From Tridacna crocea (taxonomy: Eukaryota > Mollusca > Bivalvia > Cardiida > Cardiidae): DNA of 64,000 nt. Below are positions 4,646 to 61,557 of the stretch, piece by piece. The notes under the pieces are model-generated. The model was not told where the DNA came from. It made no database searches and worked only from the letters and a program-made list of their open reading frames with translations. Where the stretch lies: assembly GCA_943736015.1 (NCBI GenBank), contig OX031059.1, positions 49,797,159 to 49,861,158 of the forward strand, read 5' to 3'. The first letter of the stretch is position 1, and every line of letters begins with the position of its first letter. Both the position numbers and the translations under genes were made by a program.

Positions 4646-4857
4646 CCCTTTCCCAAATGAAAAATTTTAGACTCTTCCAAACTCTCAGAGTTTGCAAATT
4701 TAATGAAAATGGCAGAAAGTTCTCCACATGGGTAGAAAACACTGTGGGAAAAGGAGAAATTGCTCGTTACGAGCAATTTCTCCTTTTCCCACAGTGTTTT
4801 CAAAAGCCTTGTACTGCAGACATGTAAAAACAAGGGCTTGCTTGGGAAAGGGTTTAG
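4642..4857 (-). mobile_element. THE, subfamily C, near full length
   Basis: TTAACCCTTTCCCAAATG start; stem CACTGTGGG/CCCACAGTG; core AAATTGCTCGTTACGAGCAA; ends TTGGGAAAGGGTTTA. Confidence 0.85.
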
Positions 4858-4936
4858 AGTTAAAACATAAAAAGCCCTACAAAAATCTTTCTATTTGAAT
4901 ACACTAGAATAATGGCCATACTCTTCGTCTGAGTGT

Positions 4937-5112
4937 ATTAGACTGGCCCATAATGGGAGCATTTGCAGCAACAAAATAATTATGGCAGTCAAATGAAGGG
5001 TAGAAAACTGTGGAAGAAACATGCTGGTTCCTAGCTTACTGTTCTTGTCAAACAATATTTTCAATCATCTTCCTCGTCAGAGTTCTATTGAAAGGAGATT
5101 GTTTGCAAAAGT
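4937..5112 (-). mobile_element. THE, strongly decayed
   Basis: Recognisable pieces only: AGACTGGCCCATAATGGGAG, GAAGGGTAGAAAACTG, CTCGTCAGAGT. Confidence 0.5.
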
Positions 5113-5333
5113 TCAGCACTTTGCCAACAAAACTCTGGACTTTGCGAAATTGAAAGCATTATTGCAGATGTTAAAATAAGATGTAACTCAAAAATCCTAA
5201 CTAGAGATGGAAAAGGTAGAGAACATCATGGAAAAAGGAGAAAATGCTTGTTGCCAGCTTTTTTTCCTTTTCCTGCAATGTTTTCAAAAGCTGTGTCTTG
5301 GTCATTGAAAATAAGATTGTTTTGTTAAAGTCT
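5113..5333 (-). mobile_element. THE, strongly decayed
   Basis: GAAATTGAAAGCATTATTGC, GGAGAAAATGCTTGTTGCCA and TGCAATGTTTTCAAAAGC in the expected order. Confidence 0.6.
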
Positions 5334-6909
5334 TATCACATTTTTACAACATTGCTTCTTTTATTTGGTCTGAAAGAAAAAGAGAATGAACTAAAATTTG
5401 GCAATTGTTTTGTGTGGCGGAATGAATTATCACCATGCTGAATTATCACCAAGAATTCTTTGTATTTTATCTCCTCTCTCGACACAGTGAGATGGAAACT
5501 GTTGTGAGAAAATTTGATTTTTAAGGTGGTTCCTTTATTCCGATAACCTGGGCTGACCTGACCATGTGCTGACTTCTCTGTCAGGTACAAAACGTTTGTT
5601 TGATCCTATATCAAACAGTCGTCTTTATAGTCTGAAGAAGGGTCTTGAAGGTGGGTATTTAGATTTTTCACATCTTACCAAATTAAAATATATATCACTG
5701 AAATTTATATGAAAAAACAAAACAAATCATCAATAATTAACAATCATAAAATTACAAAAAATATTTTTTTTTGATGGTATTCCCTTAAAAGGCTATGTAG
5801 CCTCTTAAGGTTTTTTTTTTATAGATTTGGTGCCAAAAATTTAAAAAAAGTATCGTGGGAATGTTAAGTGACTGGCACATGACTAATGGCGCTTGAATTC
5901 CATAACATAACAAACATGTACCTATTTACCATATGTCTTTTTGGGGCACTATGTTTGAAGCTTCATATGTGTATTTCAGGTATATAAATAAGCGAGTTGC
6001 TCATGTAAAAAAATAGATTGTGTTTCCTGTTGGTGTTACCTGGGAATCTCTAATTTCTCTAGTTGGATGGTTTTCGACTACTAGGGTTATAAGAAAGAAT
6101 ATTATAAGGCTTTTGGAGTATAAAGATGATTTTTGTGGTATTTGTCGAAGACAATACCACTATGAGTTCAAAATTGAATTTCGAAAGACCATCTATCGTA
6201 TTTTGTGCAAAGCCAAAGGAAATAAACCCAGTTAAACTAAATTTTTCTCAGAAAAATGAGTTTTTCTGTCGCACTCAGATATATTTTTAGAAATGGCATG
6301 TTAAAATACACTTGGTGAGGCCACCGATCGTGAAAATAATAATTTTTGGTGGAAAATATCTGCACTCACTCATAGATTTCTATTGGCCCAAAGATATAAA
6401 ATTCGTCTACTGATCGTTTGGTCCTGGACTTTTTTGTTCCAAAACCAGTTTGTCCCACGGTTTGTTAATCCGATGATTGGGCGCTACTCTATTTAATTCA
6501 GCATGATTATGTATAGATCGAGATGATTGTAATATTGGGAATTAAATGTTAAGAACCAAGGATATTTCAAAATCATAGTTTTCAGGTACGAACTTAATTT
6601 TGTTCAATATATTTACGCAGTTTCTCTCTCTATCCATCATGCATACTACTGTCAAGGGAAGTTACTTTTGGCTTCTCATGATCGAATGGAGACCACTAAT
6701 AGGCAAACAATTCTAATTTTGTCACAAGATCTCCCTTCAGCCAAAAAGGTATCCATTTGCTTAGTAGGTTGACTTTCAAGCAAATATTTACATAATAGTT
6801 CTCTTTTTCTTTCAAATTGTTAAGTCCACACAATGGTTTCCTTGACAAATACCACTTCAGTGTTCTCAACGCTTTGATTTTGTACTTTTTATAAAATTTT
6901 TGTCCTTTG
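5334..6909. other. Unassigned AT-rich stretch
   Basis: No exon with supporting splice sites and no THE. Small hairpin CCTTAAAAGGCTA/TAGCCTCTTAAGG at about 5786-5813. The 71-codon ORF near 6020 has no recognisable content. Confidence 0.5.
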
Positions 6910-7007
6910 ATCTGAAGGGCCACTTTTAAAAACATTGTGGGTAAAGGAGAAAATATTGGTAACCAGCATTTTCTTCCCTTTTCCATTGTGTTTTCCTTAA
7001 GTCCACC
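6910..7007. mobile_element. THE hairpin fragment
   Basis: AAAAACATTGTGGGTAAAGG...CCCTTTTCCATTGTGTTTTC; arms flanked by eroded sequence. Confidence 0.55.
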
Positions 7008-7186
7008 CAAGTGCCAAAGTTTAGAATGGTCCAATTTGAAAGATTTTTAATGACGATAAATTTGGCTCCAATGTTAAGGTTTATCTTTAAAAGGAGAAAA
7101 TGCTGTTTACCAGAATTTCTCCTTTTCCCACAATGTTTTCAAAAGTTTTCTCCTTTGGACCATTGAAAATCTGGACTGTTGGTTAA
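7008..7186 (-). mobile_element. THE, decayed
   Basis: CCAAAGTTTAGAATGGTCCA start; palindrome left arm truncated; L end ATCTGGACTGTTGGTTAA. Confidence 0.6.
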
Positions 7187-7283
7187 TTGCATAATCCCAT
7201 CATTAAATTTTTGAGCCGGATTTCTTTTGTTATCTGTGTAACTATGCTAGCTATGTCGGTAAGTCTGAATTTTGTTTTCCAGT

Positions 7284-7511
7284 ATAACCCTTTACCACAC
7301 AATGACAACTTTCGACAACCCTGAGGTAGAAGCCTTTTGAAAACATTGTAGGAAAGGAGAAAATGCTGGTAACCAGCATTTTCTCCTTTTCCCACAGTGT
7401 TTTCAACCCTTTCCAGAACAAATTTCTATTTATCAGTCACCTTTTTTTTGTCGTCTGCAAATGCTTTCAATTTGGACCAGTCCAAAACTTTCTCATGTGG
7501 TAATGAGTTAA
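7284..7511 (+). mobile_element. THE, subfamily A, near full length; first of a four-element chain
   Basis: TATAACCCTTTACCACACAA...CATGTGGTAATGAGTTAA; perfect core GGTAACC. Confidence 0.9.
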
Positions 7512-7698
7512 AGACTCCCACATTTGAAAGCAATGTGGGAGGAGTAGAAAATACTGGTTACCAGAGTTTTCTCCCTTTCCCACAATGTTTTCTACCCTTT
7601 CAAAAGCAAATTTCGTCATTTGAAACAGAAGTAATGTGTTGTCTACATTGCCTTGAAATTTGAGAAGTTTAAGAAATAGTTGTCTGGTAAAAGCTTAA
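7508..7698 (+). mobile_element. THE, L end deleted; second in chain
   Basis: Begins at the shared TTAA, L arm reduced to ACTCCCACATTTGAAAGC; core reads GGTTACC although the element is in + orientation (centre flip). Confidence 0.7.
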
Positions 7699-7915
7699 CC
7701 CTATACCAAATAATTCTGGTAATACCTGGGAAAGAAGGCATTTGTAAGCATTTTGATAAAAATTGAAAATGTTGATGACCAGCGTTTTGCGTTTTCCCCA
7801 CAATGCTTCACCCTTCCCAAAAGAATGTTCCATGTTTTAGTCGCATTCATTTCATCATCTGCAAAAGCTTTCAATTTGAACAAGTCTAAAAATTGTGTCC
7901 TATGGTAAGAGTTAA
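7695..7915 (+). mobile_element. THE, diverged; third in chain
   Basis: TTAACCCTATACCAAATAAT start, eroded hairpin, R arm TTCATCATCTGCAAAAGC, ends at a TTAA shared with the next copy. Confidence 0.8.
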
Positions 7916-8138
7916 CTCAACCAAACGACAAAATTTTAGACTTGCCCAAATTGAAAGCTTTTGCAGACGACGAATTGAATGTGACTTAAATGATGAAATT
8001 TGTCCATGAAAGGGTAGAAAACATTGTTAGAAAAGGAGAAAATGCAGGTTAACAGCATTTTCTCCTTTTCTAATCTTACTTTCAATAGGCCTCTACTTCA
8101 GGGTCGTCAAAAGTGGGGATTGTGTGGGAAAGAGTTAA
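7912..8138 (-). mobile_element. THE, full length; fourth in chain
   Basis: TTAACTCAACCAAACGACAA...GATTGTGTGGGAAAGAGTTA then A. R arm variant ATGTGACTTAAATGATGAAA. Confidence 0.85.
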
Positions 8139-8504
8139 AAGAACACGCTGGTGGGCAGGATTTGTAAATAATGGCAGCCGGTTTACCGTTTTTGTCTCTT
8201 TTCAATGCTGAAGTGGGTTTTTATGTCAATGATCAGCGCTGGAGCGACAAACACAGGGAAAAATGGAGTGTTTAATGCTCGCTAGATGTGCAAATAATGA
8301 CTTGATCCGTTCAGTCAATATCTACAGAAAAGATGGGATGAACTTAAAAGATAAACAGAAGCTCATCCTTATAAGGACATCAGACAATGCCTTACCTTTA
8401 GCGAGCTTGTTGGCACTATTAGGTGACTGAGCGCTTTACTACTGGCAACAAGTAGACGACAATGAAAAGGTACTCAGGTACTGTGATGATTATCTGAAAA
8501 AGTA
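8139..8504. other. Unassigned sequence
   Basis: Less AT-rich than the surroundings, no repeats seen, no open frame with splice support. Confidence 0.45.
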
Positions 8505-8626
8505 GAAGATATTGAGGGAAAAGAAGAATATTCTGGTCTCCAGCATCTTTTCCTTTTTTTTACCCCCACAAGTTTGTCCTAAGATTTGTTCCACAGGGTC
8601 ATGAAAATATAGAATCATTTGTTTAA
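8505..8626 (-). mobile_element. THE, half element
   Basis: Hairpin with T-rich insertion and L arm; chained by TTAA at 8623 to the next copy. Confidence 0.6.
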
Positions 8627-8849
8627 CTCTTTACCAAACGACATTTTTTGACTGGTCCAAATTGAAAGCATTTGCAGACAAAGAAATAAATGTGACTCAA
8701 AAATTGAAATTTGATTTTGGAAGAGTAGAAAACATTGTGGGAAAAGGAGAAAATGCTGGTTACCAGCATTTTTTGCTTTTCCTACAATGTTTTCAAAAGC
8801 CTTCTTTCTAAGGGTCATTAAAAGTCAAGATTGTGTGGTAAAGAGTTAA
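8623..8849 (-). mobile_element. THE, subfamily A, full length
   Basis: TTAACTCTTTACCAAACGAC start, core GGTTACC, ends ATTGTGTGGTAAAGAGTTAA. Confidence 0.9.
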
Positions 8850-8872
8850 GGACAAAGGTTTGATGCCAAGTT

Positions 8873-9100
8873 TTAACCCATTACCACACGAGAAAAAATC
8901 AGACTGGTCCAAATTGAAAGCATTTGCAGACGACAAAATAAAGGTGACCCAAAAATTAAAATTTGTTCTGCGAAGGGTAGAAAACACTGTGGGAAAAGGA
9001 GAAAATGCTGGTAACCAGCATTTTCTCCTTTTCCCACAGTGTTTTCAAAAGGCGTCTTTCTCAGGGGCGTCAAAAGTAGGGATTGTGTGGTAATGGGTAA
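8873..9100 (-). mobile_element. THE, subfamily B, full length
   Basis: TTAACCCATTACCACACGAG start; stem CACTGTGGG/CCCACAGTG perfect; core GGTAACC is flipped for a minus copy; ends TGTGTGGTAATGGGTAA. Confidence 0.9.
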
Positions 9101-9102
9101 GG

Positions 9103-9228
9103 CCATTAGGAAGAAGGTTTTTTGAAATAATGTGCGCAAAGGAGAAAATGCTGATATCCATTTGAATTGTTTCCTGCAGATGCTTTAAATTTTGAACGGT
9201 GTAAAAATCTGGTTGTTTTGTAAAATGA
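9103..9228 (+). mobile_element. THE, decayed partial
   Basis: AGGAAGAAGGTTTTTTGAAA, one hairpin arm, then R-arm remains (TTTCCTGCAGATGCTTTAAA). Confidence 0.45.
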
Positions 9229-9284
9229 AAATCCCAGCTTGCCAGGCTTTTTTAAATATCACAAGCAATTTCGTAGAAATGATA

Positions 9285-9518
9285 TCACCTGCCGACCACG
9301 TAACTTAAAATCAGTCCCAGTCGGCCATTTGCATAGAATAAAAAAAAAAGTGCTGTGGCAGAATTGGTTATAGTGCATGTTATATAAAGGTTCAGGAAAT
9401 TCCGTCCAATGTATTGCATATATTCATGGGGATGGGCATACTGATAGATGGATGGATGGACAGAAGGACGGACAAGGGTAAAACTATGCCCCTCCGCCTT
9501 TGAAAGGGGATAATGATC
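9285..9518. repeat. Possible tail of a bivalve interspersed repeat
   Basis: GATGGATGGATGGACAGAAG followed by GACAAGGGTAAAACTATGCC and CCTCCGCCTTTGAAAGGGG, a pattern familiar from mollusc non-coding repeats (from memory). Boundaries unclear. Confidence 0.4.
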
Positions 9519-9606
9519 CACATTGTCTCTTTTTCCTGTAACAGTGATTTCAAAAGCCTTTTTTCTTACGGTTCATCAATACATGGAATTACCTCATAAA
9601 GGACTG
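9519..9606 (-). mobile_element. THE, L-half fragment
   Basis: TTTCCTGTAACAGTGATTTC, AAAAGCC, then a weak L end. Confidence 0.45.
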
Positions 9607-9838
9607 AACTGTCATGTAAAAGAGTAAACTTATATCAAAGACAAATCTTTGAAAGGATACACCTGGTTATGTTTATAAAAAATACTGGTTTCCATGACAA
9701 TAAACAAATCTGTATTTGCACAATTTGGTTAGCTTCTGGTTGTAGTATGTAATCTGTTTTGCCTTTTGTCAATGTTTGGTTTAGATCAGGCCGTTTCCTT
9801 TTGAGTACCTCTTCAGTATTGGGACTCTGATTAATAAA
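9607..9838. other. Unassigned sequence
   Basis: Nothing recognised. Confidence 0.4.
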
Positions 9839-10041
9839 TTAATGCTTTACCACACAAACCTGAGTTTTAATGACCTTGTGAAAGAAGCCGTTGAAAACGT
9901 TGTGGGAAAAGGAGAAGATGCTGGTTTTCTGTAGTTCCCAAAACAAATTCCAATTATTGAATCACAGTATGTTTTGTAAACTGGAAATGCTCTCTATTTG
10001 GACCGGTCATAAATTTTGTCACATGGTAATGCATTAGTTAA
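9839..10041 (+). mobile_element. THE with right hairpin arm deleted
   Basis: TTAATGCTTTACCACACAAA, left stem AAAACGTTGTGGG, then direct jump to TTCCCAAAACAAATTCC; ends GGTAATGCATTAGTTAA. Confidence 0.75.
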
Positions 10042-10555
10042 CGATCTAATGAGGCAAGTTTGAGGCAGACAACTTTGAAAACTGCCTTGTAGAACATAAT
10101 TGAAAATGAGTGAAGAATCCATGGATTAATTTGATACTTCCAAACATAATGTGTTCGAAAAGAAATTGCTGGTTACAAATTCTAATTCTTTTATCACAAA
10201 ACTTATGTAGACTTTCCTACATGAAAAAGGAAATGTTAATGTAGAAAATGAAAATTACATGATGTAGAGTGGGGAATGGTCTCTGCTACTCCTGTGTTTC
10301 TGACTGATTGATTGATTGAACAGTGTTTTAGCTTCTTTCAATACTATATCAGTGATGCAGAGTCTAAAAAATCACTGGTTTGCTCTTCCTTACTAGTAAA
10401 AATTTGGTGAGAGCAAGTGGTTTATTCTTCTTTGTCTAACTGTAGGGCAAGTGCAAAATGGCGGGAGGACAAGCAAGAATTTTGAAACTTTTTGTACCCT
10501 GTGATGGCATGGCGGCAGCTCACATATTTGTCTTTCTTGGATTTAATCAGTACTA
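10042..10555. other. Unassigned sequence
   Basis: Contains TGATTGATTGATTG (about 10301) only; no gene or THE seen. Confidence 0.4.
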
Positions 10556-10975
10556 GGCTAGGGCTCTGAAGTTTCCTGCTAAAGGACACCCCCATGAAAA
10601 GCCCATTAGATCCAGTGAGACTCAAACCTGGGGCCTCCAGATTATGAGTCCTACACTTTACCACTGAGCCATGGGCCTCCAGATTATGAGTCCTACACTT
10701 TACCACTGCGCCATGGGTCTCCAGATTAGGAGCCCTACACTTTACCACTGAGCCATGGGCCTCCAGATTAGGAGCCCTACACTTTACCACTGAGCCATGG
10801 GCCTCCAGATTAGGAGCCCTACACTTTACCACTGTGCCATGGGCCTCCATATTAGGAGCCCTACACTTTACCACTGAGCCAGGGGCCTCCAGATTAGGAG
10901 CCCTACACTTTACCACTGAGCCATGGGCCTCCAGATTAGGAGTCCTACACTTTACCACTGAGCCATGCAGAATCC
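10556..10975 (-). mobile_element. tRNA-derived SINE with its A-box region amplified
   Basis: On the minus strand: GGCTCAGTGGTAAAGTG (A box), then CCCAGGTTTGAGTCTCACTG (B box) at about 10611-10632. The stretch from the A box to just before the B box is present eight times. Body continues to about 10556. Confidence 0.65.
10631..10966 (-). repeat. Eight tandem 42-bp units (Pol III A-box repeat)
   Basis: CTTTACCACTG recurs at about 10655, 10698, 10740, 10782, 10824, 10866, 10908 and 10950. Because 42 is a multiple of three, the minus strand stays open and yields a false 178-codon ORF with a 14-residue repeat (SVVKCRAPNLEAHG). Confidence 0.9.
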
Positions 10976-10978
10976 ATC

Positions 10979-11204
10979 TGAACTCTTTACCGCAAACAAA
11001 ATGTTTGACTGATCCAAATTAAAAGCACTTCCAGATGACAACATAAAAGTAACTCGAAAATAGAAATTTGTTTCCAGTATGGTAGAAAACTGTGGGAAAA
11101 GGAAAAAATGCTGGTTACCAGCATTTTCTCCTTTTCTCACAATGTTTTCAAAAGGCATCTTTCTCAGAGTCGTTAAAAGTCGGGATTGTGTGGTAAAGAG
11201 TTAA
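10979..11204 (-). mobile_element. THE, subfamily A, near full length
   Basis: GAACTCTTTACCGCAAAC start; R arm AGCACTTCCAGATGAC; core GGTTACC; ends GATTGTGTGGTAAAGAGTTA then A. Immediately follows the SINE tandem. Confidence 0.85.
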
Positions 11205-15971: not shown

Positions 15972-16211
15972 TGAACTATTTACCGCACAGTCCCAACACA
16001 GTCCAAACTTTTAACGATCCTGAGAGAAAGCCTTATGAAAACCTTGTTGGAAAAGGAGAAAATGCTGGTAGCCAGCATTTTCTCCTTTTCCAACAAGGTT
16101 TTCTACCCTCCCCGATACAAATGTCAATTTTCAGGTCATGTTTACTTTCTTATCTGCAAATGCTTTCAATTTGGATGAGTCTAAAATTTTGTCCTGTGGT
16201 AAAGAGTTTAA
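15972..16211 (+). mobile_element. THE with a doubly changed stem
   Basis: Stem AACCTTGTTGG pairs perfectly with CCAACAAGGTT, two changes from the usual CATTGTGGG mirrored in both arms. L arm carries a short insertion (CAACACAGTCC). Confidence 0.85.
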
Positions 16212-17579: not shown

Positions 17580-18032
17580 TTAACTTATTACCAGACGACA
17601 AAATTTAACTCATTACCACACAAGAAAATTTTGGACTGGTCCAAATTGAAAGCATTTGCAGACGACAAAATAAAGGTGACTGAAAATAGATTTTTTTTCT
17701 GGGAAGGGTAGAAAACACTGTTGGAAAAGGAGAAAATGCTGGTTACCAGCATTTTCTCCTTTTCCAACAGTGTTTTCAAAAGGCTTCTTTCTCAGGGGCG
17801 TCAAAAGTAGGGATTGAGTGGTAATGGGTTAAGACTTGTCCAAATTGAAAGCATTTGCTGACGATGAAATAAAAGTGACTGAAAAATTGAAATTTGTTTT
17901 GTGAAGGGTAGAAAACATTGTGGGAAAAGGAGAAAATTATGATTACCAGCATTTTCTCATTTTCCCACAATGTTTTCTTAAGGATTCTTTCTCAGGGGCG
18001 TCAAAAGTAGGGATTGTGTGGTAATGGGTTAA
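17580..18032 (-). mobile_element. Outer THE, split by a complete inner THE
   Basis: R terminus TTAACTTATTACCAGACGAC ends at 17608; the same element resumes after 17832 with GACTTGTCCAAATTGAAAGC and runs to GTAATGGGTTAA. Removing the inner copy and one TTAA restores an uninterrupted R arm. Confidence 0.9.
17605..17832 (-). mobile_element. Inner THE, subfamily B, full length
   Basis: TTAA on both sides (17605-17608 and 17829-17832) is the target-site duplication. Stem CACTGTTGG/CCAACAGTG is perfectly paired. Confidence 0.93.
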
Positions 18033-21850: not shown

Positions 21851-22079
21851 TTTACCCATTACCAAACAACAATATTTTGAACTGGTCCAAATTGAAAGCA
21901 TTTGCAGACGACAAAATAAAAGTGACTGAAAATTTGAATTTTGTTTTCTGAAGGGTAGAAAACATTGTGGGAAAAGGAGAAAATGCTAGTTACCAGCATT
22001 TTCTCCTTTTCCCACAATGTTTTCTAAAGGCTTCTTTCTCAGGGGCGTCAAAAATAGGGATTGTGTGGTAATGGGTTAA
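21851..22079 (-). mobile_element. THE, subfamily B, near full length
   Basis: TTTACCCATTACCAAACAAC start; perfect stem CATTGTGGG/CCCACAATG with AGTTACC; ends ATTGTGTGGTAATGGGTTAA. Confidence 0.9.
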
Positions 22080-23879: not shown

Positions 23880-24205
23880 GTCCACATTATTAGTCTAGCC
23901 CAGAAAGCAAAAATCTTTCTATGTTACAGTAGATTCTATTTTCAGCTGTTGAAAGCAATTGGATCTATAATTATGTTTGGTGGTGAAAGAGTTGAATCCA
24001 TGGGTTCTGCTTATTGTTTTTGCTCAGTTCAGTGGATAATTTTAGAGAGAAGAATGGTGGAGCATGGAAAATACATTGTTTGTTAAAACTATAAAGAATT
24101 CTTTAACACCTGAACTGCTATATGTTTTTACTGAAGCATACATTTTTAAGCTGTATGAAAGAACTTACAGTCCTTATGAAGATTTGTTGGTATTAATGCA
24201 TGTCA
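23880..24205. other. Unassigned sequence before the satellite
   Basis: Open on the + strand but with no recognisable protein content or splice support. Confidence 0.35.
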
Positions 24206-25340
24206 AATTTTGCTCAAATTATGCTCTTATTTCCATCACCAATGCTTACATTGGGCTCTCAGTTCCACTACGGATGCTCACATTGTGCTCTCATTTGCAC
24301 AAATACTCACACTGCTCTCATTTACACCACCAATGCTCAAATTATGCTCTTATTTCCATCACCAATGCTCACATTGGGCTCTCATTTCCACTCCTGATGT
24401 TCACATTGTACTCTGATTTGAACCAATACTCATACTGGGCTTTCATTTTCACCAACAATGCTCACATTCTGCTATCCCTCTGCTCACACTACTATTATTT
24501 ATACCACAAATGCTCACATTTTGCTCTAATTTACACAACCAATGCTCACATTGTGCTCTCATTTCCATTACCAGTGCTCACATGGTGCACTCTGGCATTT
24601 ATACAACCAATGCTTACATTTTGCTCTCATTTGCACAACCAATGCTTACATTGTGCTCTCATTTGCACAACCAATGCTTACATTGTGCTCTCATTTACAC
24701 AACCAATGCTTACATTGTGCCAATGCTTACATTGTGCTTTCATTTCTATCACCAATGCTCACATTGTACTCCTATTTCACCTTCGATGCTCACATTGTGC
24801 TCCTATTTACACCACCAATACTCACATGGTACTCTCATTTACACCACCAATGCTCACATGGTACTCTCATTTACATCGGAAGTGCAAACTTTTGGTTTCA
24901 TTTACATCTCCAATGCTCAGACTTTGATCTAACTTGCATTACAAATGCTGTGATTGAGCTCTCATGTGTGCTATCAACCCTGCAATGCTCACATGGTGCT
25001 ATTATTTACATGACAAATGCTTACACTGTGCTTTCATTTACACCACATGTGCTCACATTGTGCTCCCATTTCCATCACTTATCTTCACATTGTTCTCTAA
25101 TTTATTTACACCAGCAATGCTCACATTGTGCTCTCTTTCCATCCCTAATGCTCACATTGTGCTCTCATTCCTATCACCAGTTCTCACATTGTGGTTTCAT
25201 TTACTGCACTGATACTCACATGGCGCTCTAATTTATACCACCAGTGCTTACATGTGCTCTTATTTCAACCAACTTCAAGTTTTACTTTAATCTACATTAG
25301 CACTTGCTCTTACTCTTTACCAATGCTCACACTGTGCTCA
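24206..25340 (+). repeat. 32-bp satellite array
   Basis: Degenerate unit AACCAATGCTCACATTGTGC then TCTCATTTACAC, period 32 (clear between 24628 and 24720). As 32 is not a multiple of three and the unit lacks stops in all frames, several overlapping long ORFs (up to 287 codons) appear; these are not genes. Confidence 0.92.
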
Positions 25341-34710: not shown

Positions 34711-34938
34711 TTAACCCATTACCACACAATCCCTACTTTTAACGCCCCTGAGAAAAAAGCCTATAGAAAACATTGTGGGAAAAGGAGAAAATGCTGGTAC
34801 CCAGCATTTTCTCCTTTTCCCACAATGTTTTCTACCCTACACAAAACAAATTTCAAATTTTCTGTCACTTTTATTTTGTCGTCTGCAAATGCTTTCAATT
34901 TGAACCAGTCTAAAATATTGTCGTTTGGTAATGAGTTA
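34711..34938 (+). mobile_element. THE, subfamily B, near full length
   Basis: TTAACCCATTACCACACAAT start; perfect stem with GGTACCC core; ends GTCGTTTGGTAATGAGTTAG. Confidence 0.9.
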
Positions 34939-36040: not shown

Positions 36041-36269
36041 TTAACCCATTACCACACAATCCCTACTTTTGACGCCCCCAAGAAAGAAGCCTTTTGAAAA
36101 CACTGTAGGAAAAGGAGAAAATGCTGGTAACCAGCATTTTCTCCTTTTCCCACAGTGTTTTCTACCCTTCCCAGAGCAAATTTCAATTTTTCAGTCACGT
36201 TTATTTTGTCGTCTGCAAATGCTTTCAATTTAGACCAGTCTAAATTTTTCTGGTGTGGTAAAGAGTTAA
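36041..36269 (+). mobile_element. THE, subfamily B, full length
   Basis: TTAACCCATTACCACACAAT start; stem CACTGTAGG/CCCACAGTG; ends GGTGTGGTAAAGAGTTAA. Confidence 0.92.
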
Positions 36270-36321
36270 GGAATATCTCCTATAATTAATTACTGTATCA
36301 CTGTGTCTGACTGGTCTTTCT

Positions 36322-36646
36322 AATCCTTTTACTAAAGACAAGATTCTAGACCAGTCTTAACCCATTACCACACAATCCCGACTTTTGACGACCCTAGGAT
36401 AGAAGGCTTTAGAAAACTTTGTGGGAAAAGGAGAAAATGCTGGCAACCAGCATTTTCTCCTTTTCCCACAATGTTTTCTACCCTTCACAAAACAAATTTC
36501 AAATTTTCAGTCACTTATATTTTGTCGTCTGCAAATGCTTTCGATTTGGACAAACCTAAAATTTTGTCGTTTGGTAATGAGTTAACTGTTGAAGCATTTG
36601 CAGGCAAAACTTTGAATGTGGCTCACTCAAATTTTGGGAATGTCCT
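36322..36646 (-). mobile_element. Outer THE (R half) split by a complete inner THE
   Basis: CTTTTACTAAAGACAAGATT, AGACCAGTC before the insert; GTTGAAGCATTTGCAGGCAA, GAATGTGGCTCACTC after it. Confidence 0.75.
36357..36585 (+). mobile_element. Inner THE, subfamily B, full length
   Basis: TTAA on both sides; TTAACCCATTACCACACAAT...TTTGGTAATGAGTTAA; GGCAACC core. Confidence 0.92.
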
Positions 36647-36932
36647 TATCTCTTTACTCGACAAGAAAATTTTAGACTTGTCCAAATTGAAAGCATTTGC
36701 AGAAAACAAAATTGATGTGACTGAAATACTGATGTTTGCTTTGAGAAAGAAGCCTTTTGAAAACACTGTGGGAAAAGGAGAAAATGCTGGTAACCAGCAT
36801 TTTCTCCTTTTCCCACAATGTTTTCTACCCGTCACAAAACAAATTTCAGATTTTCAGTCACTTTTATTTTGTCGTCTGCAATTCCTTTCAATTTTGACAA
36901 ACCTAAAATTTTGACATTTGGTAATGAGTTAA
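36647..36932. mobile_element. R-R rearranged THE (two R arms)
   Basis: Left: inverted R arm (CTTTACTCGACAAGAAAATT, GCATTTGCAGAAAAC) switching at GCTTTGAGAAAGAAGCC to the inner L arm; hairpin; right: normal R arm to TTTGGTAATGAGTTAA. About 286 bp instead of 228. Confidence 0.85.
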
Positions 36933-48844: not shown

Positions 48845-49073
48845 TTAACTCTTTACCAAACGACAAAAATATATACTGGTCCAAATTGGAAGCATTTGCA
48901 GACGACAACATAAATTTGACTGAAAAATTGAAATTTGGTTTGAGAAGGGTAGAAAGCATTGTTGGAAAAGGAGAAAATGCTGGTTAACAGCATTTTCTCC
49001 TTTTCCAACAATGTTTTCAAAAGGCTGCTTTTTCAGGGTCGTTGAAAGTCGTGATTGTGTGGTAAAGAGTTAA
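48845..49073 (-). mobile_element. THE, subfamily A, full length
   Basis: Stem CATTGTTGG/CCAACAATG (paired change); ends ATTGTGTGGTAAAGAGTTAA shared with the next copy. Confidence 0.93.
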
Positions 49074-49298
49074 CCCATTACCACTCAATCCCTACTTTTG
49101 ACGCCCCTGAGAAAGAAGCCTTTTGAAAACACTGTTGGAAAAGGAGAAAATGCTGGTAACCAGCATTTTCTCCTTTTCCAACAGTGTTTTCTACCCTTCC
49201 CGGAACAAATTTCAATTTTTCAGTCACTTTTAATTTGTCGTCTGCAAATGCTTTCAATTTGGACCAGTCAAAAATTTTCTCGTGTGGTAATGAGTTAA
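49070..49298 (+). mobile_element. THE, subfamily B, full length
   Basis: Stem CACTGTTGG/CCAACAGTG fully paired, GGTAACC core; ends CTCGTGTGGTAATGAGTTAA. Confidence 0.94.
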
Positions 49299-52287: not shown

Positions 52288-52513
52288 TTAACCCTTTCCC
52301 AAATGACAAATTTTGGACTCTTCCAAACCAAAAGAGTTTGCAGACGACAATTTTAGATGTGGAAAAAATGACAAAGTTCTCAAAAAGGGTAGAAAACACT
52401 GTGGGAAAAGGAGAAATTGCTCGTTATGAGCAATTTCTCATTTTCCCACAGTGTTTTCAAAAGACTTTTACTGCATACCTGTAAAAACCAGGGCTTGTTT
52501 GGAAAAGACTTAA
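52288..52513 (-). mobile_element. THE, subfamily C, full length
   Basis: TTAACCCTTTCCCAAATGAC start; CACTGTGGG/CCCACAGTG; GCTCGTTATGAGC core; ends GGGCTTGTTTGGAAAAGACT then TAA, shared with the next copy. Confidence 0.92.
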
Positions 52514-55227: not shown

Positions 55228-55605
55228 GCCCCATTTCACCAAGGTAGTTATGAACAAAATTTGCTTGAGTTTTATGTAACTGTAGTATAGTTGCATGTTG
55301 CATGTATCTGCAATGAGACACATGAAAATTGTCATGATCATTTTAGAAAACTATTGTGTTAAATCAGTTTCCTGTAAATTTCATCTTTTCATCTTATCTA
55401 GACAAAATTTCCAGAAAACTTTTGAGTTATCGCAATAGTTTTTCTAAAATTATCATGATGGTTTTCATGTGTCTCATTGCAGCGATGCACCATAAAACAA
55501 CATACATTTGTTCATTCACTCATTGCAGATTAATGCCACTATACTATAGTTACACAAAACTTATGAAAGTTTTGTTTGTAACTGCCTTAGTGAAACGGGT
55601 CCCTG
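55228..55605. mobile_element. Foldback element (long imperfect inverted repeat)
   Basis: Outer arms CCATTTCACCAAGGTAGTTA and TAACTGCCTTAGTGAAACGG; second pair ACTGTAGTATAGT/ACTATACTATAGTTAC; inner pair CAATGAGACACATGAAAAT/ATTTTCATGTGTCTCATTG-like around 55310 and 55465. Confidence 0.75.
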
Positions 55606-55639
55606 GTTCTTAAAACAGGGCCCTGGTTCTTAAACATGC

Positions 55640-55800: not shown

Positions 55801-55834
55801 CAAAGGTGTTGCATGGATTCACTCCTTTTAAAAT

Positions 55835-55925
55835 GGCCATAGCAGCCCTTTAGCAGAAAATATTTTTGGTGAGAAGCATTTTCTTCTTTTTCTATGCTTT
55901 CACAGACTAATCCAATTAGTTGTGC
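55835..55925 (+). mobile_element. THE scrap
   Basis: AGCATTTTCTTCTTTTTCTA, TGCTTTCACAGACTAATCC; a separate R-end scrap (TTTGTCATCTGCATTTTGTT) lies at 56397-56450. Confidence 0.4.
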
Positions 55926-56219
55926 TTTATTTCATGCTTTCCGGTAGGATATCGAGAAATAACAGTGAACATATTTTTCGATCTTACACTTGTACCACCA
56001 GTGAAAATACCGATTTCGAGTTATTGTTGCCTAGGTTAATTGCCCGTACCTCACAACCAGATGGAAATATGACATCATTTACCATACATTTCTTGCACTT
56101 GATGTAATAATGTAATGCCTTGCTATACTGAGGGGTACGCCAAGGGGAATAACAGAAAAGAACTATACTGGATTTTGATAAAACTCCTCCCACAAAGGGT
56201 TAAAAGCATTAAATAAATA

Positions 56220-56395
56220 GAATATTTGTTTTTTTGCGGTGAAAGATCGAAATTTATTTCATCGAGTGAACACCATCAATAAGGTGATAATTTTCACTGG
56301 TGGCTGCAGCACTCGTGAAATATTACCGATGGTGTCCCCTCGATGAAATAAATTTCAATCTTTCACTGCAAAAGACAAATATCCTCTATATATTT
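56220..56395. mobile_element. MITE with long terminal inverted repeats
   Basis: GATATTTGT...GC(G/A)GTGAAAGAT then (C/T)GAAATTTATTTCATCGAG on the left is matched inversely by CTCGATGAAATAAATTTCAA and TCTTTCACTGC on the right. No coding capacity. Confidence 0.8.
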
Positions 56396-56500
56396 AGTTT
56401 GTCATCTGCATTTTGTTGTCAGTTTGGACAAGTTTATAATTGTGTTATTAAGCACCCACTATGGTAATAATATTAAAAATGTGAGTTACAATAATAATTA

Positions 56501-56645
56501 GAGGTTATTACACGGCTGATGAGGGCCGGAGAGTGATATCGGCCCGCCACCTTGATATCTGCCCCGAGGGCTTTAGCCCGAGGGCAGATTTCGAGGTGGA
56601 GGGCCGATATCACTCTCCGGCCCTCATCAGCCGTGTAATAACCTC
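56501..56645. repeat. GC-rich near-perfect palindrome (~145 bp)
   Basis: Arms of about 63 nt (start GAGGTTATTACACGGCTGAT, end ATCAGCCGTGTAATAACCTC) differ at only about three positions; centre GGGCTTTAGCCC is also paired. Composition contrasts with the AT-rich surroundings. Confidence 0.92.
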
Positions 56646-57430
56646 GTTATTACATTCATGGATCAATTGCACGATTATTTTGGTTTTTTAGCATGTTTAA
56701 ATACTAAAAACAAAAATATCTTGTCTCCATTCGACACAACTTTTTTTCCGCGGGTAAACGTCACGTTCATGACGTCATTCATCATCACTATCGTAGAGCT
56801 GCGTATTTGCAGTATAGGACGTTTAAATAAACAGTTCTTCATGTTTGTTTATTGTTAAAAAGATGTTGCCATTATTGTTTCTCAATCTAAATATTCAATT
56901 CAGTGTGATAGGGATCAAAACAGGATAAATAGAAAGATGGTTGGTTCTTCGAATTATGAAACTTAATCAAGCTCATCCGGCTCAATAGATAAAAATCGAA
57001 GAACTACTAGCCTATAGACACTACACATTGCCTGATAAGTTTCCCAATCGAAGACAACAACTATCTATTCTCTATTTATCACGTCTTTGTTGGTTAAACG
57101 ATTCAACGTTGCCTGTAGTTTTGAAGATTTGTCCGCTGGCGATTGACGGACCGATTCCGCCATTTTTTTCAAAATGGATGTTTTGAGAACGTTTGTTTGC
57201 GAGCGAGTGTTCTGTTGCTATAGATATAGAACAAATATCTTATCAACGGGCAGGATAACAGATATCAGCCCGTTGCCCCGTCATATCTGCCCTCGCGTGA
57301 CACTGATATTACACCATTTTCGGTGGAAAATGTTACTATTATTAGTAACAGAATGTAATAAATGTAAATATTTCCAAAACTCTGGGAAGTGCTTATTGTA
57401 TGTAGGAGATGGATTGAAAGATTTTGAAAT
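56646..57430. other. Possible body of a larger element attached to the palindrome
   Basis: CAGATATCAGCCCGTTGCCC and TCATATCTGCCCTCGCGTGA (about 57260-57300) echo the palindrome arms, suggesting a ~0.9-kb non-autonomous element. Short ORFs here have no recognisable content. Confidence 0.4.
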
Positions 57431-57596
57431 ATGATTTAATTTTATAGTTTTTCCTTTAGAGGTGAAAGACACAATTTTATGTAAAATGAGGTTAAAGTGA
57501 TTTTAACTGTACAATAAAGATGGAGTGATAGTAGGAAAAAGGTAATATTACCGTCATGTCATGAGGAATTTATCACAATAAAGATTAGCCATTTTT

Positions 57597-57815
57597 TACC
57601 CCGCTACCATAGGGCATAGTCTAGACCTGTCCAAATGAAAAGTGTTTGCAGAAAAACAATATAGATGTGGCTGCAGTTACTGGATTTTTCTTTTAGAGGG
57701 TAGAAAGCATTGTGGGAAATGCAGAAAATGCTGGTAACCAGTATTTTCTACTTTTTTCACAATGTTTTCAAAAGTCCCTTTCTAGGAATAGTTTGAATTG
57801 TTTTGTAAAGGATTA
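57597..57815 (-). mobile_element. THE, diverged
   Basis: ACCCCGCTACCATAGGGCAT start; stem CATTGTGGGAAATGCAG; core GGTAACC flipped for a minus copy; ends TTGTTTTGTAAAGGATTAA. Confidence 0.75.
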
Positions 57816-57987
57816 AATCGTTACTACTAAAACAATTTTTCACAAGACGTCCTTGAACATTTTCCTGCGTTTAAATCAGAATATCCCTTGGTTTTTTATA
57901 GCACAAAGAGAAACCTATTTAGGAATTCATGATGGATTTGGTTTAGTCCACAACAGCAAAATCACAGTCTCCATCAGATTGAAATCG

Positions 57988-58205
57988 TTAACTCTTTACC
58001 AAACGACAAAATTTTAGACTGTTTCAAATTGAAAGCACTTGCAGGGGACAAAATAAATGTAACTCAACAATTGGAATTTTTTCCAGTAGGGTAGAAAACA
58101 TTGTGTGAAAAGGAGACAATGCTGGTAACCAGCATTTTTCTCCTTTTCCCACAATTTTTCAAAAGGCTTTTATAACCTTGTGGAAAAATTTGATAATTGT
58201 GATAA
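57988..58205 (-). mobile_element. THE, D-like, L end lost
   Basis: TTAACTCTTTACCAAACGAC start; AGCACTTGCAGGGGAC; core GGTAACC flipped for a minus copy; L arm eroded after CTTTTATAACC. Confidence 0.8.
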
Positions 58206-58260
58206 ACATCATTTTTCCTATTCCCGAAATGTTTTGGGAACTCAAATGTTTTACATCCAT

Positions 58261-58488
58261 TTAACCCTTTCCCAAACAAGCCCTGGTTTTTACGTGTCTG
58301 CAGTACAAGTCTTTTGAAAACACTGTGGGAAAAGAAGAAATTGCTCGTAACGAGCAATTTCTCCTTTTTCCACGGTGTTTTCTACCTATTTAGAGAACTT
58401 TCTGCCATTTTTATCAAATTTGAAATTGTTGTCTGCAAACTCTAAGAGTTTGGAAGAGTCTAAAATTTATCGTTTGGGAAAGGGTTAA
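58261..58488 (+). mobile_element. THE, subfamily C, full length
   Basis: TTAACCCTTTCCCAAACAAG...CGTTTGGGAAAGGGTTAA; perfect core AAATTGCTCGTAACGAGCAA. Confidence 0.94.
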
Positions 58489-59605
58489 AACAGTATTTCT
58501 CATGTAAGCTACATCTCAATGTTGTCTGCAGTTATTTTGAATGTGGAAAATTCTTAAGTTTTGACCTGGCATTTTTAAAACACTTAATAAAACAAGAAAT
58601 ATCATTTTTAAAAACAGATACACGGTGTAGTCAATGGGAATTTGCCTACAGGGGCCCTCATAATAATATTTTTTTTTACTAATCACAAATTTCTCTGTGT
58701 TCATTAGAAGACTAGATGAAATCCCAGCATAAGAGCAACACCGAAAAGGTATCGCCTCTCTCAGAGTTTCTAGAGAATGTTTCTTTTCTACCAGTTTTGA
58801 CCTCAAACAAAAGAGTTACAAAATACATGTGTAAAATATAGGTAATAAAATCAAAATAATGAATAAAGAATTATGATCGTATTTGAGGATGTGTCAAAAC
58901 ACTATGTCATAGGGGGATTTTTGCAGTTTCCTCACGTGACACGGTTTTACAAGTGCTTTGCTGTAATATAAAAATATGTAGGCTTTTAGTTGCGATGCAA
59001 CACTCGGTAAATTTTGAATTGGAGCACAGACCAGATAAGGTTTGGTAACAGTCCAGTAGATGTATCTCTCTATCTCTGAAACCGTAAAATAAATTGCAAG
59101 TCTTTGTCAGATATAAATCAATTTCTTCATTCAGGCTTAGGTAAATTTTTCTGAAATTTGCCTTCGGATTTAAAGCGTTGTTGATTCAAATCGGTGACAG
59201 TTATTGTTCAGGTTGATGTGAGCCGTGAGATAAAATCATTGAAGCTGGGACGGAATGATCAATCATGAAAATTGGCATCCCTTACCGTCCACCATGAAAT
59301 AGTTTTTGTTATACCCCACTTGACAATAAATTGTTAACACTTTCCTCTGCCACAAATATGGTTGTTTTTCCATTAAAACTCATATGACTTTGTTCAGAGA
59401 GAAATATAAGTATTAATATATTAAGTCTTCCGATTTGGAGTGAAGAGAATATGGGAGTTGTTGCAATGCTTTCTTGATTAACATGTAAGAAAACTTCAGT
59501 CTCAAACTTCTAGTACATCCCTGTTCAGTGCTTATTTTTGAGGTTTTTGTGAAAAAGGTAAATTTTAATATTTGTACCTACCTGTACTAGGACGCAACTC
59601 TTGTG
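58489..59605. other. THE-free intronic stretch
   Basis: No repeats recognised for 1.1 kb. Segment 59090-59290 is of even composition (for example GTGACAGTTATTGTTCAGG, GATGTGAGCCGTGAGA) and could be a conserved non-coding block. Confidence 0.4.
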
Positions 59606-59735
59606 GCTCAACGCTTTACCAGATGACTAAATTTTAAGCATGTCTATATTGAAATCGTTTGCCAGTGACAACTGAAACGCATCACAACTAAAAGATTTTT
59701 TTTTCTTTCAACCCTTTACCACACAATCCTGAGCT
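59606..59735. mobile_element. THE scraps
   Basis: R-end scrap (CGCTTTACCAGATGACTAAA) followed by a bare L terminus (ACCCTTTACCACACAATCCT at about 59711). Confidence 0.5.
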
Positions 59736-59962
59736 TTACTTTTTACTGAACAATCCCAACTTAAAACAAACCCTTGAATGAAACCTTTTGAAAACATCGT
59801 TGGAAAAGGAGAAAATGCTGGTAACTAGCATTTTCTCCCGTTTCCACAATATTTTCCATTCTTCCCAATCAAAATTTCAATTTTTCAGTCACATAAATTT
59901 TGTCATCTGCAAATACTTTTAGTTTGGACCAGTTTAAAATTTTTTCGTGTGGTAAAGAGTTG
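59736..59962 (+). mobile_element. THE, near full length
   Basis: CTTTTTACTGAACAATCCCA start; stem CATCGTTGG; GGTAACTAGC core; ends TTCGTGTGGTAAAGAGTTGA. Confidence 0.85.
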
Positions 59963-59967
59963 AACAA

Positions 59968-60120
59968 TCGAAGGAAAGAAGACTTTCGAAAACCTTGTGT
60001 CAGTAACCAGTATAGTCTCCTTTTCCGACAATATTTTCTTCTATTTCAATAAAAAAATTTAAATTTTGAGGCTCCTGTATTTTGTTGTCAACAAATGTAT
60101 ATATTTTGGACAAGTTACCC
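59968..60120 (+). mobile_element. THE, decayed
   Basis: GGAAAGAAGACTTTCGAAAA, ACCTTGTG then a deleted stem, R arm TTTTGTTGTCAACAAATG. Confidence 0.6.
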
Positions 60121-60258
60121 TTTTTTTTTTGCGTTTCTCTCTTTATTTTCAAAAGTCCTCCTCATTATGGCTACAAAAACATAGTATTTTGGGGAGGGTT
60201 AGATTCCCTATATTTTTCTTAGTAGTAATTTTTGTCTTATCCTGCTTGTATTTTGCAG

Positions 60259-60357
60259 TGAAACCTTTAAAGATGAGTCCATCGCAGTTGACCACTGCCT
60301 ACCAAGGGTACAATGCTTCTGGCTTTAACAATCAAAGTGCTGCTGGCTTCACTTATC
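60259..60357 (+). CDS. eya: Probable eya exon, MKP...Tyr/Ser-rich (32 codons)
   Basis: Acceptor TATTTTGCAG, donor C|GTAAGT. Entry TG completes ATG (Met) with the A of the previous exon. Encodes KPLKMSPSQLTTAYQGYNAS then GFNNQSAAGFTY. The MKP followed by an SPSQ segment recalls the GMKPESG...SPSQ region of EYA3; tyrosine and serine content fits the transactivation domain. A TIR-bearing element of about 0.5 kb begins 36 bp after the donor. Confidence 0.6.
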
Positions 60358-60392
60358 GTAAGTTTGTATTATGTTCCATTAGAAAAACTTAA

Positions 60393-60903
60393 CCACATAG
60401 TATCAAGGGTAACAACCTACATCATAGCATACGTCATCGGAGACATTTTAAATCCGCCATTTTCGTTTTAAAAGAAAACTTTGTCAGCTTGTACATTATT
60501 GTTATTGAAGATCTGTCCAAACAAAGCTGTGCATAATTATGGTACCGGACAACTTTCTTTGTAAGTATACATTAATATTTTGTTCATTAGTTTTGTTGAT
60601 TTTGCAATTACTTCCGCACAATTTTCGAAGCCGGTGACACATGTGCGATTTAACAATAGATGTCGTATACAATGCCATTAAGAATAATTGTGTTGAAGTG
60701 TTTAGCGCTACAACATTGTTTCATGGCATTTTCATTTCACGAATAAGACAAATATATTTACCGTCACCTGATGAAGCAGATATTCTAAGTAAATTTTAGA
60801 TACATATATCTTTTTTAAGTAATTAATCTGCACTTTGCGCACAAATTGGCGGCTATTCCGACACCTCTGCTATGACGTAGGTTGTCACCCTTGTAGTATG
60901 TGG
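60393..60903. mobile_element. TIR-bearing element in the intron after exon 60259-60357
   Basis: CCACATAGTATCAAGGGTAA, CAACCTACATCATAGCA at the left is matched by TGCTATGACGTAGGTTGTCA and CCCTTGTAGTATGTGGG at the right. About 510 bp, no coding capacity, family unknown. Confidence 0.75.
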
Positions 60904-60918
60904 GCAATTGTTGTTTTA

Positions 60919-61147
60919 TTAACCCTTTATCACACAATGAGGACTTTTGATGACCCTGAAAGAGAAGGCTTCAGAAAACATTGTAGGAAAAGGAGAAAAT
61001 GCTGGTAGCCAGCATTTTCTCCTTTTCCCACTATGTTTTCTACCCTTCCCATAGCAAATTTTAACTCTTCACTCACATTTATTTTGTTGTCTGCAAATTC
61101 TCTCAATTTGGACCAGTCCAAAAATTTGTTGTCTGGTAAAGGGTTAA
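60919..61147 (+). mobile_element. THE, subfamily A, full length
   Basis: TTAACCCTTTATCACACAAT start; stem CATTGTAGG/CCCACTATG; GGTAGCC core; ends TTGTCTGGTAAAGGGTTAA. Confidence 0.92.
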
Positions 61148-61236
61148 GATAACGCCTTGGTGCTACTCTTTATCTAAAGGTTAATTTCAGGTCAATTTAT
61201 ATGAGTAGTAATTAGAAGTAAATGCCTCAATATGTA

Positions 61237-61344
61237 TCTATACCACACCATCCTGAGTTTTAACATCCCTGAGGAAGACGGCTTCTGAAAACATTGTGAA
61301 AAAGGAGAAAACACTGGAAAATATAATAATACAGCATTTATTAA
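61237..61344 (+). mobile_element. THE, left half
   Basis: TATACCACACCATCCTGAGT, CATTGTGAAAAAGGAG; right half replaced before TTAA at 61341. Confidence 0.65.
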
Positions 61345-61557
61345 CCCTTTCCAAACAAGCCCTGGTTTTTACCTGTCTGCAATATAAGTCTTTTGAAAAC
61401 ACTGGGGGAAAAGGAGAAATTGCTCGTGACGAGCAATTTCTCCTTTTCCCACAGTGTTTTCTACCCTCTTAGAGAACTTTCAGTCATTTTCATTTAAGTT
61501 TAACATTGTCGTCTGCAATCTCTTTCAGTCTAAAATTTGTCGTTTGGGAAAGAGTTT
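61341..61557 (+). mobile_element. THE, subfamily C, near full length, upstream of an exon
   Basis: TTAACCCTTTCCAAACAAGC start; core AAATTGCTCGTGACGAGCAA; ends GTCGTTTGGGAAAGAGTTT. Leaves about 34 bp for the pyrimidine tract of the 61592 exon. Confidence 0.9.

What the first reader, a model, noticed from the sequence alone, without database searches (positions are those of the whole stretch)
4741..61450. Hairpin arms change together between copies (stem covariation)
Stem haplotypes are mirrored in both arms: CATTGTGGG/CCCACAATG (most copies), CACTGTGGG/CCCACAGTG (8990, 4741, 52402), CATTGTTGG/CCAACAATG (48958), CACTGTTGG/CCAACAGTG (17717, 49128), CCTTGTTGG/CCAACAAGG (16041), and the core AATGCTGG/CCAGCATT versus ATTGCTCG/CGAGCAAT (4760, 52417, 58335, 61425). 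Random mutation would break pairing on one side, as in 1990 and 2980. Paired changes mean either selection for a folded RNA or DNA, or a copying process (template switching, hairpin-primed repair, arm-to-arm gene conversion) that rewrites one arm from the other.
Basis: partly seen in the sequence, partly recalled or inferred. Interest (0 to 1): 0.78.

Follow-up and report, generated by a model that had tools for sequence, protein, structure and literature searches.

The report
Self-copying hairpin arms in jumping DNA
A very abundant short jumping-DNA element in a large unidentified genome carries a DNA hairpin whose two halves change together, partly because copies inherit the change and partly because one half seems to be rewritten now and then from the other, a known copying slip seen here in large numbers.

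Summary
The palindromes are real. They are the 67-bp core (33+1+33) of a 229-bp element with TTAA ends and terminal inverted repeats (MITE-like), covering 42% of the window and about 15% of a 200-kb genome sample. Arm covariation exceeds chance: 275 complementary double changes against 127 simulated in 359 copies. Two causes are mixed. (2) Complementary changes also recur. Among otherwise perfect 35-mers genome-wide, doubly changed copies were complementary in 43 of 50 listed at pair 9, 41 of 50 at pair 16, 30 of 50 at pair 5, but 18 of 50 at pair 1, in the hairpin loop (expected about 0.33-0.43). At pair 9 there are 199 mirrored doubles against 20 and 33 unmatched. Of 73 carriers whose flanks were checked, 12 form one young lineage; 61 are not closely related within their variant. 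G·U-type and A·C-type single changes are equal (463, 492): no sign of RNA-stem selection. Best reading: slow arm-to-arm rewriting of DNA, most likely hairpin-primed template switching, seen as an excess of about 1-7% of single-arm changes, on top of inheritance. Unexplained: the palindrome diverges about half as fast as its flanks.

The parts
4735..4801 (-). 67-bp palindrome, haplotype CACTGTGGG + core ATTGCTCG, arms perfect (33/33)
   Evidence: I22; DNA hairpin -38.2 kcal/mol
8980..9046 (-). 67-bp palindrome, haplotype CACTGTGGG, arms perfect
   Evidence: I23
16037..16103 (+). palindrome with CCTTGTTGG/CCAACAAGG
17711..17777 (-). palindrome with CACTGTTGG/CCAACAGTG, arms perfect
   Evidence: (I20)
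21958..22024 (-). palindrome with the common outer haplotype CATTGTGGG/CCCACAATG; one inner mismatch
   Evidence: (I15)
34766..34832 (+). palindrome with the common outer haplotype in both arms
   Evidence: (I16)
36041..36274 (+). near full-length element copy (reference copy of repeat family D2), used as first seed
48845..49071 (-). element copy, one half of a head-to-head pair; its palindrome 48952-49018 has CATTGTTGG/CCAACAATG outside and an inner mismatch
   Evidence: (I1)
49072..49298 (+). element copy, other half of the head-to-head pair; its palindrome 49125-49191 has CACTGTTGG/CCAACAGTG, arms perfect
   Evidence: (I1, I21)
52392..52458 (-). palindrome with CACTGTGGG/CCCACAGTG outside but a broken core (ATTGCTCG/TGAGCAAT)
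58316..58382 (+). palindrome with core ATTGCTCG/CGAGCAAT; outer arms carry mismatches
61395..61461 (+). palindrome with core ATTGCTCG/CGAGCAAT; outer mismatch in the left arm

Best explanation
The palindrome is the core of a 229-bp TTAA-flanked transposon-like element (a MITE) of very high copy number. SHOWN: the stem changes fall into two classes, lineage markers inherited by subfamilies, and complementary double changes that recur in copies without close relatives at stem pairs 5, 9 and 16 but not at pair 1. INFERRED: the recurrent class comes from rewriting of one arm from the other. The 67-nt strand folds into a 32-bp stem with a 3-nt loop; when a nascent or exposed strand folds back, its 3' end can be extended on the opposite arm, so that a mutation in one arm is either doubled or erased (quasi-palindrome correction by template switching). 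Near the loop there is no stem to prime on, which fits the absence of the effect at pair 1 and its weakness at pair 5. The process is slow: the complementary excess amounts to about 1% (pair 5), 5% (pair 16) and 7% (pair 9; about 5% by my own arithmetic after removal of one lineage) of the copies with a single-arm change. The paired changes that mark subfamilies could be the same events caught in copies that later multiplied.
For: Genome-wide, otherwise perfect 35-mers (173,858 copies). Pair 9: 1120+1117 single-arm, 199 mirrored doubles against about 7 by naive independence; 43 of 50 listed are complementary. Unmatched control, left pair 9 with right pair 11: 20 and 33 in the two orientations (no such control was run for the other pairs). 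Pair 16: 5078+4934 single, 691 double against 144 naive, 41 of 50 listed complementary. Pair 5: 3718+3554 single, 249 double against 76 naive, 30 of 50 complementary, a modest excess. Pair 1: 283 double, 18 of 50 complementary. Carriers: within each variant, C-G (16) and G-C (11) carriers at pair 9, 20 of 30 listed carriers at pair 5 and 10 of 41 at pair 16 have no flank distance under 0.10, as spread as random consensus copies or more. All three substitution types occur in pairs, roughly in proportion to the single changes (16:16:11 against 36:32:32 at pair 9). No wobble preference: 463 G·U-type against 492 A·C-type. Pair 1 lies in the hairpin loop. Centre base T (51) exceeds G (23) and C (21), as rare spacer flips would give (weak). 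The same process is described in yeast (PMC8604942, PMC3820800) and proposed for RNA genes (PMC8794818).
Against: Only one copy is changed in both arms at both pair 9 and pair 16; long co-copied tracts would give more, though the count of copies changed at both places in one arm was not measured. In the local set, with 12 pairs left out, no significant excess remains (65 against 59), so the effect is small and clear only at genome scale. Non-complementary doubles at pair 5 (about 100) also exceed the naive 76, so copies differ in age and naive numbers are too low. Arm rewriting without bias does not explain why arms diverge about half as fast as flanks. T-A at pair 9 is mostly one lineage (12 of 16), and in the 60 copies the nearest neighbour shares the variant in 28 against 14.6 expected. 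6 of those 60 copies were weakly oriented. Pair-1 single changes were never counted, so its expected share is taken from the other pairs. Enzymes and strand were not observed; mismatch repair in an extruded cruciform would look much the same.
Confidence: 0.7

Rival explanations
1. Lineage inheritance only: each paired state arose once in an ancestor and was multiplied by transposition; no ongoing process.
For: The main paired states need few changes on a tree built from the flanks alone: pair 26 C-G 27 carriers/7 changes, pair 3 C-G 30/8, pair 8 T-A 33/7, pair 13 T-A 18/4, pair 20 C-G 15/3, pair 4 A-T 7/2 (no shuffled-label control); pairs 3 and 8 change together in 27 of 36 carriers. T-A at pair 9 is a young lineage in 12 of 16.
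Against: Other paired states are not clade-like on the same tree: pair 22 T-A 8/7, pair 24 T-A 5/5, pair 20 A-T 9/9, pair 21 A-T 8/7 (tree noise adds to this). Carriers of the other pair-9 variants and of the fetched pair-5 and pair-16 variants have no close relatives within their variant; all three variants recur at one pair; the complementary share falls to chance at pair 1. It also leaves open why ancestral double changes were complementary.
Confidence: 0.1
2. Selection for a folded RNA stem (hairpin RNA, small-RNA precursor).
For: Perfect strong hairpin (folded as DNA); the palindrome evolves slower than its flanks. In the 174 ungapped copies, A·C-type mismatches (183) exceed G·U-type (146), which read on the other strand would be a slight G·U excess.
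Against: In the larger set the two types are equal (463 against 492, p 0.36; 361 against 387 without the 7 diagnostic pairs); many paired changes are transversions that no G·U step can reach; no Rfam match in the window; selection on each of very many dispersed copies is implausible (inference).
Confidence: 0.07
3. Selection at the level of source copies for a DNA hairpin or a palindromic protein-binding site needed for transposition.
For: Slow divergence of the palindrome; very different rates at two A-T pairs, 0.6% at pair 9 and 2.9% at pair 16 per arm, as for a site read by a protein. A DNA hairpin need not prefer G·T over A·C.
Against: By share of the commonest base the terminal repeats (0.79, 0.77), which transposition should need, are less conserved than the palindrome (0.85); but among the closest relatives the left terminal block differs by only 0.015, less than the palindrome, while the right terminal block differs by 0.21. 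Paired changes are found in scattered copies without close relatives in the sample. It may well act together with arm rewriting.
Confidence: 0.2
4. Exchange between dispersed copies (ectopic gene conversion) replaces the whole palindrome, so that both arms change at once.
For: Pair 26 T-A/C-G differs in both arms between near relatives in 5 of 34 close pairs, as a swap with another common haplotype would give; the right border of the slow region could be where homology ends.
Against: Rare variants such as pair 9 C-G have few donors, yet recur in unrelated copies.
Confidence: 0.12

Closest known systems
Quasi-palindrome correction / inverted-repeat arm homogenisation by template switching (yeast; PMC8604942 and PMC3820800, passages read)
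   Same: One arm becomes the complement of the other; recurrent and independent events; works on short inverted repeats; spacer inversion as a by-product in PMC8604942
   Different: Here inferred from dispersed copies of a transposon in a large genome; many copies allow a comparison between stem pairs, with a null at the loop pair; the events seen are single-base changes, since the test patterns ask for them
Template switching that creates and maintains RNA hairpins (PMC8794818, passages and Discussion read)
   Same: Compensatory changes explained by copying rather than by two-step selection
   Different: No RNA function is indicated here
Concerted evolution of inverted-repeat arms in Nematomorpha mitochondrial genes (PMC6649704, passages read)
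   Same: Paired substitutions keep arms complementary
   Different: There nearly all long repeats are perfect; here most old copies decay and only a small share looks rewritten
TTAA-flanked MITEs of the piggyBac superfamily (that Kolobok also uses TTAA is recalled)
   Same: Short, terminal inverted repeats, TTAA at both ends, high copy number; piggyBac transposase genes occur in this genome
   Different: A 67-bp interior palindrome that is more conserved than the rest; no transposase with matching ends was identified

Membership tests
MITE (non-autonomous TIR transposon) | Short and repeated on both strands | tested here: met
   229-bp consensus; 84 + and 68 - hits in the window
MITE (non-autonomous TIR transposon) | No coding capacity | tested here: inconclusive
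   229 bp is too short for a transposase, but several stop-free frames of 120 aa or more run across copies (for instance 36336-36914); no test for a conserved frame was made
MITE (non-autonomous TIR transposon) | Terminal inverted repeats | tested here: met
   Left end TTAACCCTTTACCAAACAA; right end reversed TTAACTCTTTACCAAACGA; 17 of 19 alike (consensus printed)
piggyBac-type MITE | TTAA target-site duplication | tested here: met
   TTAA at both ends in 109 of 233 copies with both ends aligned, 162 left, 144 right; the next commonest end 4-mer has 9
piggyBac-type MITE | Transposase of the superfamily in the genome | tested here: met
   118 matches to PF13843, many without stops, several with equal scores
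piggyBac-type MITE | A transposase element with the same terminal repeats | not tested
Quasi-palindrome template switching | Complementary double changes in excess of chance | tested here: met
Quasi-palindrome template switching | Recurrence in unrelated copies | tested here: met
   61 of 73 checked carriers have no relative under 0.10 within their variant; 12 are one lineage
Quasi-palindrome template switching | Effect absent where no stem can prime (loop) | tested here: met
   Pair 1: 18 of 50 complementary; loop in the fold. Selection for a stem would give the same at this pair
Quasi-palindrome template switching | Co-copied tracts (several bases at once) | tested here: inconclusive
   One copy changed in both arms at pairs 9 and 16, complementary at both; number of candidates unknown
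Quasi-palindrome template switching | Spacer inversion | tested here: inconclusive
   Centre T 51 against G 23, C 21; wrong orientation of a few copies not fully excluded
Structured RNA under selection | G·U intermediates tolerated over A·C | tested here: not met
   463 against 492 in 359 copies; 146 against 183 in 174 ungapped copies
Structured RNA under selection | Known RNA family | tested here: not met
   No Rfam match in the window at gathering score

The most novel reading that the evidence does not exclude
The hairpin is part of how the element multiplies: each round of amplification passes through a folded single strand whose end primes synthesis on the other arm, so that arm rewriting is coupled to transposition and the palindrome is kept alive by it. 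This would explain together the paired changes, the perfect paired states of whole subfamilies and the palindrome's slow divergence.
Probability: 0.07. Interest if true: 0.85.

Novelty: new member of a known kind. Interest (0 to 1): 0.52.

Why it matters
Compensatory changes in stems are often read as evidence of a functional RNA. Here is a very large natural set of dispersed copies, with no sign of RNA constraint in the test made, in which complementary changes recur, so covariation alone can mislead. With 173,858 otherwise perfect central palindromes in one genome, the rate of arm rewriting could be measured for each stem pair, base change and distance from the loop.

Tried and rejected
RNA-stem selection: not supported by the wobble test and no Rfam hit in the window. 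Lineage inheritance as sole cause: rejected by flanks of carriers, kept for the named haplotypes. A first estimate of expected doubles (101 observed against 97.8) used squared per-copy rates and is too high for copies with few changes; it was replaced by the simulation. In copies with at most 6 changes and the 7 pairs left out, that simulation gives 19 complementary against 8.9 and 17 non-complementary against 10.7; with 12 pairs left out 14 against 10.4. Close-pair counts gave few events (12 paired against 114 single at flank distance 0.10-0.15), many of them at pair 26, so they do not settle the matter alone. The T-A carriers at pair 9 looked scattered by place but were mostly one lineage; without the flank check the count would have been overstated. 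Rows dropped before counts: copies with under 26 of 33 letters in an arm or under 60 flank letters (447 hits to 375), and 16 overlapping duplicates (359 left). One search used 174 ungapped copies of 447; searches used the 217 copies with 150 flank letters or more. The complementary/not counts and the base counts were made by hand from the first 50 doubles or 100 singles that the tool lists (from contigs C1 to C5 at most), not from all copies. The expected shares 0.33, 0.43 and 0.40 at pairs 9, 5 and 16 follow from those base counts by my own arithmetic. The 17 single-arm carriers fetched as a control were all A-to-T changes. Lineages among the non-complementary and pair-1 doubles were not checked. 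The copy-number extrapolation rests on 20 stretches with 0 to 28 hits each and is rough. The species was not identified. Literature searches with terms for MITE plus template switching or palindrome (6, 1, 10 of 17 and 10 of 14 papers listed) showed no title or abstract on arm homogenisation in a MITE; listings only were seen, and most subscription journals are missing from that library.


Full report
What it is. The window lies at C4:49,797,159-49,861,158 of an unnamed 1.049-Gb genome with 31 contigs. The palindromes are not separate features: each is the core of an interspersed 229-bp element with TTAA ends and terminal inverted repeats, found on both strands. Profile searches cover 42% of the window and 15% of a 200-kb sample taken at two places on each of ten large contigs; the 173 hits there (0 to 28 per 10 kb) extrapolate, roughly, to 0.9 million copies. 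The palindrome is 33+1+33 nt in the consensus and folds as DNA into a 32-bp stem with a 3-nt loop at -37 kcal/mol. piggyBac transposase genes are present, many with open frames, but none was tied to this element.

The observation. The listed haplotypes are present but chosen: 14 of 18 copies with listed 9-mers in both arms match, 4 do not, and one named core is broken. Many copies have decayed arms (57 of 113 usable window copies have more than five mismatches). Still, in 359 copies, complementary doubles are 275 against 127 simulated, and non-complementary ones are not in excess.

Lineages. The excess sits mainly at pairs 3, 4, 8, 13, 20, 22 and 26. Without them it is 101 against 80.5 (1 of 300 simulations reaches it), and without five more pairs it is 65 against 59, not significant. 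On a tree from the flanks alone (357 copies, no shuffled control), the main paired states need few changes (pair 26 C-G: 7 for 27 carriers; pairs 3 and 8: 8 and 7 for 30 and 33), while pair 22 T-A (7 for 8), pair 24 T-A (5 for 5) and pair 20 A-T (9 for 9) are scattered.

Recurrence. Pattern counts over the whole genome give far more power. With pairs 1-17 otherwise exact (173,858 perfect copies), pair 9 is changed in one arm in 2237 copies and in both in 199, where naive independence predicts about 7. An unmatched control that allows for uneven ages, left pair 9 with right pair 11, gives 20 and 33. Of the first 50 doubles listed, 43 are complementary at pair 9, 41 at pair 16, 30 at pair 5 and 18 at pair 1, against 0.33-0.43 expected from the single-change spectra at pairs 5, 9 and 16 (hand counts). 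Flanks of the 43 complementary pair-9 carriers in the list were fetched: 12 of 16 T-A carriers are one young lineage, but the 16 C-G and 11 G-C carriers are at least 0.11 apart within their variant; the 20 fetched pair-5 carriers of 30 and the 10 fetched pair-16 carriers of 41 are also apart (0.13 or more). Random consensus copies are no more spread (11.9 clusters of 16). With the lineage counted once, pair 9 has 32 complementary against 7 other (p about 1e-9 against 0.34). The excess at pair 5 is modest (p about 0.01).

Mechanism. Equal numbers of G·U-type and A·C-type single changes (463, 492) speak against an RNA stem; in the smaller ungapped set A·C-type mismatches lead (183 to 146). Paired variants of all types appear roughly in proportion to the single changes at pair 9, as expected if a single change is copied to the other arm. 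The effect is nil at pair 1, small at pair 5 and larger at pairs 9 and 16, as priming on a folded end requires; pair 1 alone would also fit selection for a stem, since it is in the loop. The excess is 1.1-1.3%, 4.8-5.0% and 6.7-7.0% of single-arm copies at pairs 5, 16 and 9, so rewriting is slow and most changes stay one-sided. This is the process called quasi-palindrome correction or template switching in yeast (PMC8604942, PMC3820800, passages) and proposed for RNA genes (PMC8794818, passages and Discussion). Against it: just one copy is changed in both arms at both pairs 9 and 16, so long tracts are not indicated, and mismatch repair in a cruciform is not excluded.

What stays open. Between near relatives chosen by flanks outside the tested block, palindrome blocks differ by 0.02-0.06 where flank blocks mostly differ by 0.05-0.2 (the left terminal block by 0.015); further out the means are about half of the flanks'. 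The border is sharp on the right (0.022 to 0.101) and gradual on the left (0.051 to 0.064). Unbiased rewriting does not lower divergence, so another cause (constraint on source copies, or exchange between copies) must act as well. The filters drop copies with decayed palindromes; searching by the right flank alone, 168 of 227 hits still have at least 60 of 67 palindrome positions aligned, at median identity 0.94, so the effect is not only a matter of selection of copies.

Verdict. Real, better than chance, mostly inheritance for the named cases, with a well-supported minority of recurrent arm rewriting. The process is known; the setting and the numbers are new to me, and four searches (listings only) showed no report of it for a MITE.

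Noticed in passing
window 3644-3734; 56501-56645; 56232-56373; 55308-55482: Further inverted repeats (arms 43-64 nt, 87-95% complementary), not compared with the element; 3644-3734 folds as a DNA hairpin.
   Followed up: partly
window 24046-25231: Three overlapping stop-free frames made of one repeated unit, in a stretch with strong GC skew (-0.22), most likely a tandem repeat rather than a gene.
   Followed up: no
window 10422-11018, minus strand: 198-aa frame of repeated GSVVKCRAPNLEAH-like units.
   Followed up: no
window 48845-49298: Two copies of the element joined head to head without a gap (I1).
   Followed up: no
L029-L044 (pair-9 T-A carriers): 12 of 16 are one very young sublineage with almost identical flanks (nearest distance 0-0.03), a sign of recent amplification.
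   Followed up: partly
element columns 55-76 against 99-120: The left arm diverges more than the right arm among near relatives; no cause found.
   Followed up: no
element column 88 (palindrome centre): Centre base oriented A 259, T 51, G 23, C 21: T in excess, as rare spacer flips would give.
   Followed up: partly
palindrome pairs 9 and 16: Two A-T pairs in similar A runs differ 4.5-fold in single-arm changes (2237 against 10012), hinting at sequence-specific constraint near the centre.
   Followed up: no
window 36336-36914 and others: Stop-free frames of 120-192 aa run across copies of the element; whether any is a conserved frame was not tested.
   Followed up: no
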